From: JBHIBR01 sp046759145 [NCBI: Nitrospinota bacterium]
Lineage (GTDB): Bacteria > UBA8248
Assembly: GCA_046759145.1 (NCBI GenBank)
Contig: JBHIBR010000112.1
Coordinates: forward strand, 1-6,378
Reading direction: 5' to 3'
Length of the DNA stretch: 6,378 nucleotides
Position numbers and translations under genes: made by a program. Positions 3 through 3,608 of this stretch are shown here, in pieces (the first letter of the stretch is position 1; each line of letters begins with the position of its first letter). The notes under the pieces were generated by a model that did no database searches, was not told the origin of the DNA, and saw only the letters and a list, made by a program, of their open reading frames with translations.

Positions 3-995
3 CACCATCTCTTCCTCGGGATCCCGGTCGAATCGCTCGGCGTCGCGCCCTACGTCCCCCTCGTGGACGAGGACGTGGCGTTCAGGCCGCGCGACCTGGG
101 CCTGCGGCTCCCGCCTGGGGCGCGGGCGCACTTCCTGCCGCTGCTGGCCGGCTTCGTCGGAGCCGATGCCGTGGGGGTGGCGCTCGCGCTCAACCTCGAC
201 CGTCCGGGACGCGAAAAAGCGGCGCTCGCGGTGGACCTGGGCACGAACGTGGAGCTGCTCCTCGGGACGCCGGACGGCGTCCTCTGGTGCGCCTCCACGC
301 CGGCCGGCCCGGCTTTCGAAGGAGGCGAGGTCCGTTGCGGCATGGCCGCAGGCGAGGGAGCGATCTGCGCGATGGACGTGCAGGAGGGGCGGATCCGCCT
401 CTGCACGATCGAGGGGCTGCCCGCCGCAGGGATCTGCGGTACGGGTCTCGTCGAGGTGGTGGCGGGTCTTCTGGACCTGGGAGTGGTCGAGCCCTCCGGG
501 CGGATGCGCCCGGCCGAGGAGCTTCCCGAGGGGGCGTCCGAGGCCCTGCGCCGCCGCATCTTCGAGAGCGACGGAGGGCGCGGATTCACCCTCGAGGAGG
601 GGAGAAACTCGGCGTCGGTCAGGCCGATCGTGCTCGAGCAGTGGGACGTGCGCAGGCTCCAGTTCGCGAAGGCGGCCGTCCGCGCGGGAGCGGACCTCCT
701 CCTTCAGGCGGCGGGCCTCGCCTGGGAGGACGTCGGGGCGGTCCGCCTGGCCGGGGCGTTCGGCGCCCACCTGCGCTCCGAACGGGCCCGGCGCGCCGGC
801 CTCCTTCCGCCCGTTCCGCTCGAACGGGTCCGCGTGGTAAACAACGCGGCGGCGAGCGGGGCCCGGCTCGCCCTCCTCGCGCGGGCGGAGCTTGAGCGGG
901 CCTCGGCCCTGAAAGAGAGGGCGCGCTACGTCGAACTGGCCGGTCGGCCCGAATTCCAAGATGCCTTTGTAAAGGCGCTGCCGTTTCCGGGATGA
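3..995 (+). CDS. Corrinoid activation/regeneration protein, ASKHA ATPase domain (RACo/RamA-like, DUF4445), 5'-truncated by window edge
   Basis: The frame is open to the left edge, so the true start lies upstream; the GTG at 63 is only the first internal start-like codon, and family residues precede it (HHLFLGIP, then LG and APYVPL). The 330 visible residues are the C-terminal half of the corrinoid reductive activators: a phosphate-1-like motif DLGTNVE (234-254), STPAGPAFEGG and RCGMAAGEGAI (about 295-365), GICGTGLVEVVAGLLDLG (about 430-483), QWDVRRLQFAKAAVRAG (about 640-690), LAGAFGAHL (about 748-774) and NNAAASGARLALL (about 841-880). The end, YVELAGRPEFQDAFVKALPF, is also typical of the family. 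Known family role: ATP-dependent reduction of inactive Co(II) corrinoid proteins in methyltransferase systems, usually with an N-terminal 2Fe-2S ferredoxin domain, which would lie outside this window. Inference: the partner corrinoid protein or methyltransferase genes are probably upstream. Oddity: Val replaces the usual Gly in DIGTNGE. Family call is firm; the specific partner is unknown. Confidence 0.9.
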   Translation, partial: HHLFLGIPVESLGVAPYVPLVDEDVAFRPRDLGLRLPPGARAHFLPLLAGFVGADAVGVALALNLDRPGREKAALAVDLGTNVELLLGTPDGVLWCASTPAGPAFEGGEVRCGMAAGEGAICAMDVQEGRIRLCTIEGLPAAGICGTGLVEVVAGLLDLGVVEPSGRMRPAEELPEGASEALRRRIFESDGGRGFTLEEGRNSASVRPIVLEQWDVRRLQFAKAAVRAGADLLLQAAGLAWEDVGAVRLAGAFGAHLRSERARRAGLLPPVPLERVRVVNNAAASGARLALLARAELERASALKERARYVELAGRPEFQDAFVKALPFPG

Positions 996-1312: not shown

Positions 1313-1319
1313 GGGAGGG
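1313..1319 (+). promoter_or_regulatory. Ribosome binding site of the selenoprotein gene
   Basis: GGGAGGG lies 7 bases before ATG 1327, good Shine-Dalgarno strength and spacing. It matters because it fixes the start of the upstream half of the interrupted frame: translation is set up to begin at 1327, not at the TTG at 1615 after the TGA, which has no comparable purine-rich site at proper spacing. Confidence 0.7.
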
Positions 1320-1326
1320 TTGTGCA

Positions 1327-2028
1327 ATGGCGACGGACAAGCGGAACGACTACCGCAGGAAGCCACCCGGGCCGCTGGCGGGGTTCTGGTCCTGGCGCTA
1401 CCTGGACTTCTGGCGCACGGTGCGGTTGGTCACCAGCCCGCGGGTCAAAGCGTTCTACAAGAACTTTCCCTCCCTCTTCCCCCCGGGCTCCGAGTTCCCG
1501 GCCATCGACCTCGAGACGGCCGACGGGAGCCGGATCAACACGGCAGAGCTGAGGGGCAAGAAGCACTTCGTCCTCCTCACTGGTGCCATCACCTGAGCGC
1601 CCGCCCGGAGGCAGTTGCCTCTTCTGGAAGAGCTGGCGAGGAAATACGCTGAGCGCGACGTGCAGACCTTCCTCATGTATGTGCGGGAACCCCACCCCCA
1701 GGAGCGCGGCTTCCGCCAGTATCGAAAGCACGGGAGCTACGAGCACAAGATGGAATATGCCCGCCTCCTGGCGGAGAAGCACGGGCTGACCATCCCGGTG
1801 CTCGTGGACGGCCTCGACGAGAAGGTGCACCAGTTGCTGGGCAACCTCCCGAACCTGGTGTATGTGGTGAACAAGCAGGGCCGGGTGGAGTACAAGTGCA
1901 CCTGGACCGACGCCGACGCCATCGACGAGGTGCTCGCTGAGATGGTGACAGCAGAGGACCCCTCGCGCCCCGTGTCGAAGACCATGGACAGCAGCCAGGT
2001 GCCGGGCAGGGTTCCTGTGGAAGTGTAA
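1327..2028 (+). CDS. Iodothyronine deiodinase-like / redoxin-fold selenoprotein, TGA at 1594-1596 read as selenocysteine
   Basis: Two open segments, 1327-1593 and 1597-2028, are in the same frame and divided only by TGA 1594-1596. Joined, they give 233 residues with Sec at 90. The halves make one thioredoxin-fold protein of the deiodinase-like type: PPGSEFPAIDLETADG (about 53-68), the strand HFVLLTGAIT (80-89) ending at the redox position, APARRQLPLLEELARKY, then MYVREPHP (117-124), matching the YI-x-EAHP segment of deiodinases with Glu121 and His123, TIPVLVDGLD (155-164, with a cis-Pro-type Pro157), and LVYVVNKQGRVEYK, matching the deiodinase LYV...GKVVYQ strand. Deiodinases carry T-Sec-P-P at the site; here it is T-Sec-A-P. 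No cysteine occurs except Cys191. ATG 1327 has a strong Shine-Dalgarno. Family knowledge: bacterial deiodinase-like selenoproteins exist, with unproven substrates (reductive dehalogenation or peroxide/thiol redox). A pseudogene with a Cys/Trp-to-stop mutation is the alternative, but the intact flanks and SECIS-like hairpin argue against it. Confidence 0.85.
1594..1622 (+). promoter_or_regulatory. Sec UGA codon with bacterial SECIS-like hairpin
   Basis: After TGA 1594-1596 a stem GAGGC (1608-1612) pairs perfectly with GCCTC (1617-1621), extended by a G-T wobble (1607/1622), around the tetraloop AGTT (1613-1616). Sixteen bases separate the TGA from the loop, and a G is the second loop base. Both fit the known bacterial SECIS rule (G among the first two loop bases, loop about 16-37 bases after UGA). 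The spacing is at the short limit and the stem is short, so it is a plausible but not a strong element by itself. Confidence 0.6.
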
Positions 2029-2354: not shown

Positions 2355-3608
2355 ATGAAACCTATCACCAGGCGGAAGTTCCTCAAAGGCGCGGCGGCGG
2401 CAGGTGGGGCCGCTGCCATCTCGGGCTTTCCCGCCTTCCTGCGGGAGGGCCTGGGGGCGCGCCCCGTCAAGTGGGGCTCCATCCAGCCCACCACGGGTCC
2501 CTACTCCACCGAGGCGTTCGACCAGAAGCTGGGCGTAGAGCTGGCCATCGCCCATGTCAACGAGCAGGGGGGCGTGATGGGCCGTCCGGTGAAGCTCCTC
2601 TTTCGCGATGACCAGTTCAAGTGGGACCAGACCACGAGCCACGCCCTGGACCTGCTCGACAACCACCGGGTGGATTTCATCGGCGGCTCGATGGTGGGTC
2701 CCGAGGAGGTGCGCCTGAACGAGATCTCCAGGAAGCGCGGGATCATCTACGCCAACTACCCCCAGCACATTCTGAGCACGCCGGGCAATGCCAAGAAGAT
2801 GTCCCGTTACTTCTTCACGGCGAACGTCACCCCTTATCAGACGGCGGCCGCGGTCGCGCGGTATGCGGACAGAAAGAAGCTCGGCAAACGCTGGCACTTT
2901 ATCGGGGATGACTACATCTGGCCGAAGATGTTCATCCCGGCCTACACGACCATTGCCAAGCAGGTGGGGGCGAGTTTCGATCCGGACCGGGACACCTCCT
3001 GGGTTCCCTTCCCGGCCTCGACCGACTACTCGGCTCACTTTCCGAAGATCTTGAAGGCGAAGCCCGATGTCCTGTTCCCCACCATGTGGGGCTCGCATCA
3101 GGTGGCCTTCGTGAAGCAGGCCCGCGAGGCTCGGCTCCACGAGAAGATCCAGATCGTGCTCTCCCTCACGGAGATCACCATGCCCGAGGCGGCAGGGGTG
3201 GGGATGTACAGCGACTTCTTCGCCGGGACCACCTGGTACTGGACCGTGAAGGACCGTTATCCCGGGGCCAAGAAATTCTACGACGCCTTTTTCGCCGTGC
3301 GGAAACGGCCTCCCTCGGCCTACGCGTCCTCGGCCTACGAGCTGGTCCGCCTCATCCTGGAGACTGCCAACGAGATCAAGTCCCTCAAGCCAGAACCCCT
3401 GCGGAAGGCCCTGGAGGGGCGAAGGTTCCAGTACGTGAAGGGCGAGTCCTGGATACGGCCCTGCGACCATGTGTGTGTCAGCGACTTCTTCGTGATGAAG
3501 GGTAAGAAGGCCTCGGCCATGAAGAGCAAGTGGGACTTCTTTGACGTGGTGGACCTGGTCGGGGGAGAGGGGAATACGCTCCCTTGCGCAGCTAAGGGTC
3601 TCGTCTGA
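2355..3608 (+). CDS. Tat-exported ABC transporter substrate-binding protein, HAAT/LivK-type (Peripla_BP_6)
   Basis: A 417-residue periplasmic binding protein of the branched-chain amino acid/amide/urea class. The N-terminus carries a twin-arginine signal: TRRKFLK (5-11), then an Ala/Gly-rich hydrophobic stretch (12-28), with likely cleavage near Ala35. The mature part opens with VKWGSIQPTTGPYS, the first strand and ligand loop of this fold, followed by GVELAIAHVNEQGGVMGRPVKLLFRDDQ, the classic early segment of LivK-like proteins, then VDFIGGS and an IIYANYPQ strand. The end contains an IRPCDHVC segment, similar to the IRACDHQ-type motif of some relatives. It would deliver a small solute to the LivHM permease encoded downstream; the ligand cannot be read from the sequence, and amino acids, amides, urea or aromatic acids are all possible. 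Tat export suggests folding before export, which is common in this subgroup. Homology is clear, specificity is not. Confidence 0.9.
   Translation: MKPITRRKFLKGAAAAGGAAAISGFPAFLREGLGARPVKWGSIQPTTGPYSTEAFDQKLGVELAIAHVNEQGGVMGRPVKLLFRDDQFKWDQTTSHALDLLDNHRVDFIGGSMVGPEEVRLNEISRKRGIIYANYPQHILSTPGNAKKMSRYFFTANVTPYQTAAAVARYADRKKLGKRWHFIGDDYIWPKMFIPAYTTIAKQVGASFDPDRDTSWVPFPASTDYSAHFPKILKAKPDVLFPTMWGSHQVAFVKQAREARLHEKIQIVLSLTEITMPEAAGVGMYSDFFAGTTWYWTVKDRYPGAKKFYDAFFAVRKRPPSAYASSAYELVRLILETANEIKSLKPEPLRKALEGRRFQYVKGESWIRPCDHVCVSDFFVMKGKKASAMKSKWDFFDVVDLVGGEGNTLPCAAKGLV

What the first reader, a model, noticed from the sequence alone, without database searches (positions are those of the whole stretch)
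1327..2028. Deiodinase-like selenoprotein hidden behind an in-frame TGA
Seen: two open segments in one frame, split only by TGA 1594-1596, that together make one continuous thioredoxin-fold protein. The TGA falls exactly at the redox position after the strand HFVLLTGAIT, where deiodinases have Sec, and the Glu-x-His of MYVREPHP follows at the expected distance. Known: deiodinases and their bacterial relatives use Sec here. Inference: the codon is decoded as Sec. A standard gene caller would report two fragments or lose the N-terminus, so databases may hold this gene as truncated.
Basis: partly seen in the sequence, partly recalled or inferred. Interest (0 to 1): 0.75.

Follow-up and report, generated by a model that had tools for sequence, protein, structure and literature searches.

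The report
Bacterial deiodinase-like selenoprotein gene
A bacterial gene that looks broken by a stop codon very probably encodes one intact selenium-containing redox enzyme, a distant cousin of the animal enzymes that process thyroid hormone; such bacterial proteins were already known, so this is a well-supported new member of a known kind.

Summary
Window 1327-2028 is one 233-residue frame split only by TGA 1594-1596. Among 108 gene copies the same column is TGA in 80 and Cys in 24. A SECIS-type hairpin follows the TGA; such hairpins occur in 72 of 80 Sec copies, 0 of 24 Cys copies and 80 of 793 background stretches. In the nearest phylum, tRNA-Sec is found in 16 and selA, selB and selD each in 14 of 18 genomes. 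The window's own genome is not held, so its machinery is untested.

The protein is a confident thioredoxin fold. A family-wide profile matches DIO3 best (6.5e-32); a profile of its own clade ties ResA (1.4e-14) and DIO3 (2.7e-14), the DIO3 match running through the deiodinase insertion. Thr-Sec, Tyr, Glu-x-His, His and a basic residue line up with DIO3's active-site network. SCTU, Trp207 and the full loop are missing, and DIO3 itself is nearer another bacterial branch. Verdict: a deiodinase-like selenoprotein, a family known since 2005, not a thyroid-hormone deiodinase; my best guess is a one-Sec, thiol-dependent peroxide reductase.

The parts
1313..1318 (+). Shine-Dalgarno-like GGGAGG, 8 nt before the ATG
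   Evidence: read from sequence
1327..2028 (+). deiodinase-like selenoprotein gene, 233 residues with Sec at 90, stop TAA
1594..1596 (+). in-frame TGA read as selenocysteine (Sec90)
   Evidence: column is TGA in 80 and Cys in 24 of 108 gene copies
1607..1622 (+). SECIS-type hairpin: arms 1607-1612 and 1617-1622, apical loop AGUU 1613-1616, 16 nt from UGA to the loop
   Evidence: constraints from a passage of PMC13188914
1591..1593 (+). Thr89 codon, aligned with DIO3 Thr169
   Evidence: 46 of 47 rows Thr; alignment
1678..1695 (+). Tyr118, Glu121 and His123 codons, aligned with DIO3 Tyr197, Glu200 and His202
   Evidence: 47, 46 and 47 of 47 rows; alignment
1729..1749 (+). His135 to Lys141, aligned with DIO3 His219 to Arg225
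   Evidence: His in 33 of 47 rows, Lys or Arg in 47 of 47; alignment

Best explanation
The gene encodes a thioredoxin-fold selenoprotein of the bacterial deiodinase-like family, probably soluble in the cytosol. Shown by comparison: UGA 1594-1596 sits where its close relatives have UGA and more distant ones UGA or Cys, a SECIS-type hairpin follows it, and the protein keeps a deiodinase-type active-site network (Thr-Sec, Tyr, Glu-x-His, His, basic residue) with no second Cys conserved in its clade. Inferred: SelB with Sec-tRNA reads the UGA as Sec. The Sec selenolate then attacks an electrophilic substrate, most likely a hydroperoxide (about 0.5). The oxidised selenium is reset by an outside thiol (a one-Sec cycle). 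The confidence below is for the Sec-protein identity, not for the substrate.
For: Codon column 80 TGA, 24 Cys of 108. The window lies in an all-Sec clade of 25 rows (SH-aLRT 96). Hairpin in 72 of 80 Sec copies, 0 of 24 Cys copies, 80 of 793 background stretches; with the full 16-37 nt spacing 72, 2 of 24 and 170 of 793. In 15 close sequences the covariation score is reached in 0 of 500 shuffles; the window's AGG/CCT against CGG/CCG in the 13 group-A relatives keeps one pair by synonymous changes. In the nearest phylum tRNA-Sec is found in 16 of 18 genomes, selA in 14, selB in 14 and selD in 14. SelA gene directly downstream in L074, L076 and L077. Profile of the whole family to DIO3 6.5e-32, DIO2 2.7e-27, ResA 2.5e-16. 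Model pLDDT 89.6; DIO3 and DIO2 first by structure, Z 17.1. The Sec is the only Cys/Sec in 12 of 17 clade rows. Peroxide step: 1-Cys peroxiredoxin AhpE is among the close folds (Z 15.6), and the gene lies near G6PD with glucokinase or 6-phosphogluconolactonase genes in L011 and L012.
Against: The window's genome is not held, so its Sec machinery is unseen. Taken alone, the window's hairpin is not exceptional: folding z-score 0.02 and -0.30, synonymous-shuffle p 0.096. The number of pairs changed on both sides (2) is reached in 182 of 500 shuffles, and sliding by +1 gives a slightly higher covariation score (0.230 against 0.214) though only 56.7% paired. Rows are related, so counts are not independent. 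Some genomes with TGA copies lack a machinery gene in the held assembly: L003 and L053 no clear tRNA-Sec; G024 and G027 no selA, selB or selD, G031 no selA, G015 no selB, G001 and G017 no selD, G027 no tRNA-Sec; incomplete assemblies are the likely cause but were not checked. A profile of the window's clade alone puts ResA level with DIO3, and Pfam Redoxin scores above T4_deiodinase. Nothing bears directly on the substrate. The peroxiredoxin PxxxTxxC motif (recalled) is absent.
Confidence: 0.93

Rival explanations
1. Same Sec protein, but its substrate is an organohalide: the selenolate takes a halogen off a carbon-halogen bond, as animal deiodinases do, and an outside thiol regenerates it.
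For: The residues that DIO3 papers tie to activity and loop anchoring line up. A one-Sec, thiol-resolved cycle suits both chemistries.
Against: No halogen-related family appeared among the neighbours looked at: window genes, 19 neighbours, ten, and the 25 families shown of 102. SCTU is AITU here, Trp207 is not kept, the loop between the His202 and Arg225 equivalents has 17 residues against 22 by DIO3 numbering, and the DIO3 fragment is nearer another bacterial branch.
Confidence: 0.2
2. Same Sec protein acting as a thiol-disulfide or other redox exchanger of the ResA/TlpA kind.
For: ResA and DsbE structures score within 1 Z of the deiodinases (ResA 16.3, DsbE 16.4 against 17.1); Foldseek ranks such chains first; ResA is level with DIO3 for the clade-only profile and for the window protein alone.
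Against: No Cys at U+3 (UAPA; 3 of 80 Sec copies have UxxC); highest 19-residue hydropathy mean 0.95, so no membrane-like stretch; the ResA sequence match covers mainly the N-terminal half, while the DIO3 match runs through the Glu-x-His insertion.
Confidence: 0.15
3. The TGA is a true stop, a pseudogene mutation or a sequencing error, and the gene is two fragments.
For: The window's own genome and Sec machinery cannot be inspected; its hairpin alone is not significant.
Against: The same TGA stands in its close relatives from many separate assemblies, with hairpin, machinery and conservation on both sides.
Confidence: 0.02
4. The TGA is read as another residue through a changed genetic code or simple read-through.
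For: One relative has TGG at this column (L008).
Against: Where the column is not TGA it is Cys in 24 of 28 copies, and SECIS-type hairpins track TGA. TGA is also the terminal stop of many of the copies.
Confidence: 0.01

Closest known systems
Bacterial deiodinase-like selenoproteins (PF00837), reported from the Sargasso Sea in 2005 (PMC1088965; passages read)
   Same: Thioredoxin fold, Sec or Cys at the same place, bacterial SECIS, Pfam T4_deiodinase match above cut-off
   Different: The window belongs to a separate all-Sec clade with a shorter loop after Glu-x-His (17 residues; 25 in 12 of 47 rows). Two reviews list the motif as UxxC, which 3 of 80 Sec copies here have
Mouse iodothyronine deiodinases DIO3 (4tr3) and DIO2 (9h48)
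   Same: Fold, Sec position, Thr-Sec, Tyr, Glu-x-His, His and basic residue aligned
   Different: No SCTU, no Trp207, shorter loop, no membrane-like stretch. The DIO3 fragment is 24% identical to the window (5.5e-7) but 36% to L047 of the other clade (5.3e-33)
NCBIfam NF038285 deiodinase_rel
   Same: Matches residues 56-191, E 1.1e-21
   Different: 77.7 bits against a cut-off of 250; that model has 347 positions
ResA/TlpA thiol-disulfide oxidoreductases and 1-Cys peroxiredoxin AhpE
   Same: Same fold (ResA Z 16.3, AhpE Z 15.6, DIO3 17.1); ResA level with DIO3 in the clade-only profile
   Different: No CxxC or UxxC; no Glu-x-His insertion in the ResA match

Membership tests
Bacterial deiodinase-like selenoprotein (PF00837) | Pfam T4_deiodinase above gathering score | tested here: met
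   35 bits against 27; Redoxin scores higher, 40.9
Bacterial deiodinase-like selenoprotein (PF00837) | Sec or Cys at the catalytic column in relatives | tested here: met
   104 of 108 copies TGA or Cys
Bacterial deiodinase-like selenoprotein (PF00837) | bacterial SECIS after the UGA: loop 3-9 nt, stem 4-16 bp, G in first two loop positions, 16-37 nt spacing (a fourth, free-energy limit was cut off in the passage and not tested) | tested here: met
   loop 4, stem 6, loop begins AG, spacing 16 nt; constraints read
Bacterial deiodinase-like selenoprotein (PF00837) | UxxC motif listed in two reviews; the 2008 survey lists none, so not taken as defining | tested here: not met
   UAPA in the window; 3 of 80 Sec copies have UxxC
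Bacterial deiodinase-like selenoprotein (PF00837) | Sec machinery in the same genome | not testable with these tools
   window genome not held; 14-16 of 18 genomes of the nearest phylum have each part
NCBIfam NF038285 deiodinase_rel | curated cut-off 250 bits | tested here: not met
   77.7 bits
Iodothyronine deiodinase (animal DIO) | thioredoxin fold with Sec and Glu-x-His network | tested here: met
Iodothyronine deiodinase (animal DIO) | SCTU active-site motif and Trp207 of the omega-loop | tested here: not met
   AITU; Gly128-Phe129 in the window. Elsewhere among the Sec copies SCTU occurs in 2 and DGW in 24 of 80. Residue roles from passages of PMC7506546
Iodothyronine deiodinase (animal DIO) | N-terminal membrane segment | tested here: not met
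   highest 19-residue hydropathy mean 0.95, starting at residue 82
Iodothyronine deiodinase (animal DIO) | removes iodine from thyroid hormones | not testable with these tools
   needs an assay
ResA/TlpA thiol-disulfide oxidoreductase | CxxC (or UxxC) redox pair | tested here: not met
   U90-A-P-A93
Peroxiredoxin | PxxxTxxC active-site motif (recalled) | tested here: not met
   residue 83 is Leu and 87 is Ala

The most novel reading that the evidence does not exclude
The bacterial deiodinase-like selenoproteins as a whole are one-Sec reductive dehalogenases, with the window's clade as a diverged, multi-copy branch. Animal deiodinases came from the other bacterial branch, which already has the Trp and longer loop, so that thyroid-hormone chemistry was inherited from bacteria. 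(Probability lowered from 0.15 to 0.12 on checking, because DIO3 is nearer the other branch than the window's.)
Probability: 0.12. Interest if true: 0.75.

Novelty: new member of a known kind. Interest (0 to 1): 0.36.

Why it matters
It shows that the active-site network of the thyroid-hormone deiodinases, including Glu-x-His, is kept in a bacterial selenoprotein branch that lacks SCTU, Trp207 and the full-length loop. Genomes of the nearest phylum carry up to three such genes. That makes 'what did this active site do before thyroid hormone' open to a direct enzyme assay. It is also a clear case of a gene that a standard ORF call splits in two.

Tried and rejected
Window-only folding gave nothing significant (z 0.02; z -0.30; synonymous-shuffle p 0.096); the hairpin case rests on comparison. 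Rfam and tRNA scans of the window found nothing. Phage search: no match. Plasmid search: one match, 30% identity, Cys. Five viral-contig scans found no relative. The first genome-contig scan used poorly chosen patterns and found none. Of 198 sampled genomes of the phylum of G003, only G003 itself matched at 1e-20.

Operon with the window's ABC transporter: not supported. The window's other genes had no match at 1e-8 in the loci of the window's own clade, including the longer ones fetched later. One distant relative, L069, does have a related branched-chain permease and ATPases within about 1.3-4.5 kb of the gene, and L013, L014 and L053 have stray ATPase matches. The solute-binding protein has a relative in 12 of 18 genomes of the nearest phylum at 1e-30. 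Solute-binding proteins of several families stand beside the gene in L007, L012 and L013; this was not tested against a background.

Structure alone does not settle the family: DsbE, DipZ and ResA lie within 1 Z of DIO3. Paper searches for a function or origin of bacterial deiodinase-like proteins, or for this phylum, gave nothing on point in the listings.

Mended on checking: two copies counted as Cys, 88-era notes and 97 (second copies on L007 and L008) are TGA copies with UxxC, the aligned Cys being three codons after the TGA. One search recounts all copies; the older figures were 78 TGA and 26 Cys, and 70 of 78, 1 of 26 and 77 of 774 for hairpins. The tree was built with the old labels for these two.

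Full report
The frame. Window 1327-2028 reads as one 233-residue protein if TGA 1594-1596 is decoded. A mechanical ORF list gives 1327-1596 and 1615-2028 as separate ORFs. GGGAGG stands 8 nt before the ATG. Neighbours in the window are a RACo-type corrinoid activator fragment (3-995), then a TAT-type Peripla_BP_6 solute-binding protein (2355-3608) and two permeases of the urea/branched-chain type, and an ATP-binding ORF (5929 to the end) that I name from its sequence only. The gene is separated from both sides by about 330 nt.

Relatives and the codon. A scan of one genome for each of 84,980 species found 86 relatives among 119 matched stretches; the best 80 were kept. At the column of residue 90 they show TGA in 53, plus L016 where the TGA lies three codons before the aligned Cys; Cys in 23; TGG in 1 (L008), GAT in 1 (L017) and an ambiguous TNA in 1 (L076). 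The best match, L002 (a Nitrospinae-labelled MAG, 51% identity), led to its phylum. There 18 of 18 genomes have a match at 1e-3, though G016 has only a weak 60-residue one. 38 of the 38 matches with at least 36% identity that span residue 90 contain an in-frame TGA (44 places listed). They fall into groups of about 51-56, 40-44 and 36-41% identity, and several genomes (for example G018, G021, G022, G029) hold one of each. Four of the 38 also list a TAA or TAG, and one of these a second TGA; I take these to lie past the gene end, which I did not check one by one. In all, 108 distinct copies including the window give 80 TGA, 24 Cys, and one each of TGG, GAT, GAC and TNA (which corrects). In a tree built without that column the window falls in a 25-row all-Sec clade with 96% SH-aLRT support.

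The SECIS. Published constraints for bacterial SECIS (a passage of PMC13188914) are a 3-9 nt loop, a 4-16 bp stem, a G in the first two loop positions and 16-37 nt from UGA to the loop, plus an energy limit not visible in the passage. The window has a 6-pair stem, loop AGUU and 16 nt. Under my own stem limits and 16-22 nt spacing, 72 of 80 Sec copies, 0 of 24 Cys copies and 80 of 793 other stretches of the same genes pass; with 16-37 nt the figures are 72, 2 and 170. Among 15 close sequences the helix is 92.2% paired and the covariation score exceeds all 500 shuffles. Against this, the number of pairs changed on both sides (2) is reached in 182 of 500 shuffles, and a slide by +1 scores 0.230 against 0.214 on covariation, while pairing only 56.7%. 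In the window, Arg95 AGG and Pro98 CCT replace the CGG and CCG of the 13 nearest (group A) sequences, so both sides of one pair changed synonymously; L110, with CGG and CCT, breaks that pair. By itself the window's hairpin is not significant, and related rows are not independent.

The machinery. The window's genome is not held. In 50 of the 80 relatives' genomes, tRNA-Sec at 60 bits or more is present in 23 of 25 genomes whose copy is TGA (L003 and L053 lack it) and in 4 of 23 whose copy is Cys (L039, L040, L049, L071 have it); the two others, L008 (TGG) and L017 (GAT), have it (Fisher p 1.8e-7). The 60-bit line is mine, drawn at a gap between 64.9 and 54.8 bits. SelB over the curated cut-off is found in 9 of 14 genomes tested: seven of the eight TGA genomes (L006 has only fragments), plus L008 and L017, and none of the four Cys genomes. 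In the 18-genome phylum: selA 14, selB 14, tRNA-Sec 16, selD 14 of 18; the selD matches themselves each carry an in-frame TGA (14 of 14). SelA is encoded directly downstream of the gene in L074, L076 and L077; in L076 the codon itself is ambiguous.

The protein. Pfam gives Redoxin 40.9, T4_deiodinase 35 and AhpC-TSA 34.4 bits, all above cut-off. The model has pLDDT 89.6 and pTM 0.88, with Sec90 at the start of helix 91-106 after strand 80-86. By structure mouse DIO3 and DIO2 lead (Z 17.1, 165 and 161 residues), tied within 1 with DsbE, DipZ and ResA. Foldseek by E-value puts thiol-disulfide chains first and the deiodinases at ranks 27 and 29. By sequence the answer depends on the query. The window protein alone matches ResA 1.5e-4, a putative thiol-disulfide oxidoreductase 1.9e-4 and DIO3 2.4e-4. 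A profile of 17 rows of its own clade gives ResA 1.4e-14, DIO3 2.7e-14, DIO2 1.4e-12, where the DIO3 match runs in one stretch through the deiodinase insertion. A profile of 47 rows from both clades gives DIO3 6.5e-32, DIO2 2.7e-27, ResA 2.5e-16. The DIO3 fragment printed is nearest to the other clade (L047, 36%, 5.3e-33) and stands far from the window (24%, 5.5e-7, line 107 of 111). So the window belongs to the family but to a branch far from the animal enzymes.

The active site. Against DIO3 residues named in PMC7506546 and PMC11592359 (passages read): Thr169, Sec170, Tyr197, Glu200 and His202 match T89, U90, Y118, E121 and H123, kept in 46, 45 (as Sec/Cys), 47, 46 and 47 of 47 rows. His219 matches H135 (33 of 47 rows) and Arg225 matches K141 (Lys or Arg in 47 of 47). 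Ser167 is Ala87, Trp207 is not kept, and the loop has 17 residues against 22 by DIO3 numbering. Elsewhere in the family SCTU occurs in 2 and Asp-Gly-Trp in 24 of 80 Sec copies. Hence the window's protein shares deiodinase-type active-site parts but lacks features that the papers link to hormone binding. DIO3 Arg275 was not aligned rigorously; the window has Trp193/Thr194 in that region, and Arg275 is not kept even in DIO2.

Mechanism. No second Cys is conserved in the clade: the Sec is the only Cys/Sec in 12 of 17 rows, and Cys at the window's residue 191 is found in 2 of 47 rows, the window included. In 15 of 47 rows a Cys aligns with the window's residue 148. There is no strongly hydrophobic 19-residue stretch. 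I therefore infer a soluble one-Sec enzyme reset by an outside thiol. Peroxide is the likeliest substrate (about 0.5), organohalide about 0.2, other redox exchange the rest. Weak support for a reductant link: in L011 and L012 the gene lies near G6PD with glucokinase or 6-phosphogluconolactonase genes. These substrate steps are inference only; the stated confidence of 0.93 is for the Sec-protein identity.

Known or new. Deiodinase-like bacterial selenoproteins were reported in 2005 (PMC1088965) and recur in a 2008 survey (PMC2398784) and in reviews (PMC9312934; PMC13188914); I saw passages only. So this is a new member of a known kind. What I did not see in print, in searches (open-access library; listings, and passages of the papers named), is the expansion to three groups in this phylum or the matching of the DIO3 active-site network in bacterial copies; absence from those searches is weak evidence.

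Noticed in passing
L008:3088, 4044, 6936: One 7.5 kb contig holds three deiodinase-like copies with TGA (UxxC type), TGG and TGA at the catalytic codon; the TGG copy still has a SECIS-type hairpin, possibly a recent loss of Sec.
   Followed up: partly
L007:9323, L008:3088, L016:8073: A small group of copies with Sec-Pro-Tyr-Cys (UxxC); 3 of 80 Sec copies, although reviews give UxxC as the family motif.
   Followed up: partly
L017:631 and L117: Copies with Asp codons (GAT, GAC) at the Sec column, probably without redox function.
   Followed up: no
L074:6994-8427, L076:1049-2470, L077:8538-9974: SelA gene directly downstream of the deiodinase-like gene in Rhodospirillaceae- and Flavobacteriales-labelled MAGs.
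   Followed up: yes
G015:C154 and G017:C28: tRNA-Sec lies about 4.6 kb from a deiodinase-like Sec gene in two genomes.
   Followed up: no
L011:4564-7217, L012:4527-7856: The gene lies near G6PD and glucokinase or 6-phosphogluconolactonase genes in two deltaproteobacterial MAGs.
   Followed up: partly
L007, L012, L013 flanks; L069:3572-6727: ABC solute-binding proteins of different families stand next to the gene in bacteria and archaea, and a branched-chain-type transporter lies near it in L069; frequency not compared with background.
   Followed up: no
L045, L047 and other-clade loci: The other bacterial Sec branch (many Planctomycetota-labelled) is clearly nearer mouse DIO3 than the window's branch: 36% for L047, SCTU in L045 and L047. 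It looks the better place to seek the origin of animal deiodinases.
   Followed up: partly
window 3-995: C-terminal part of a RACo-type corrinoid activation protein at the window's left edge.
   Followed up: no
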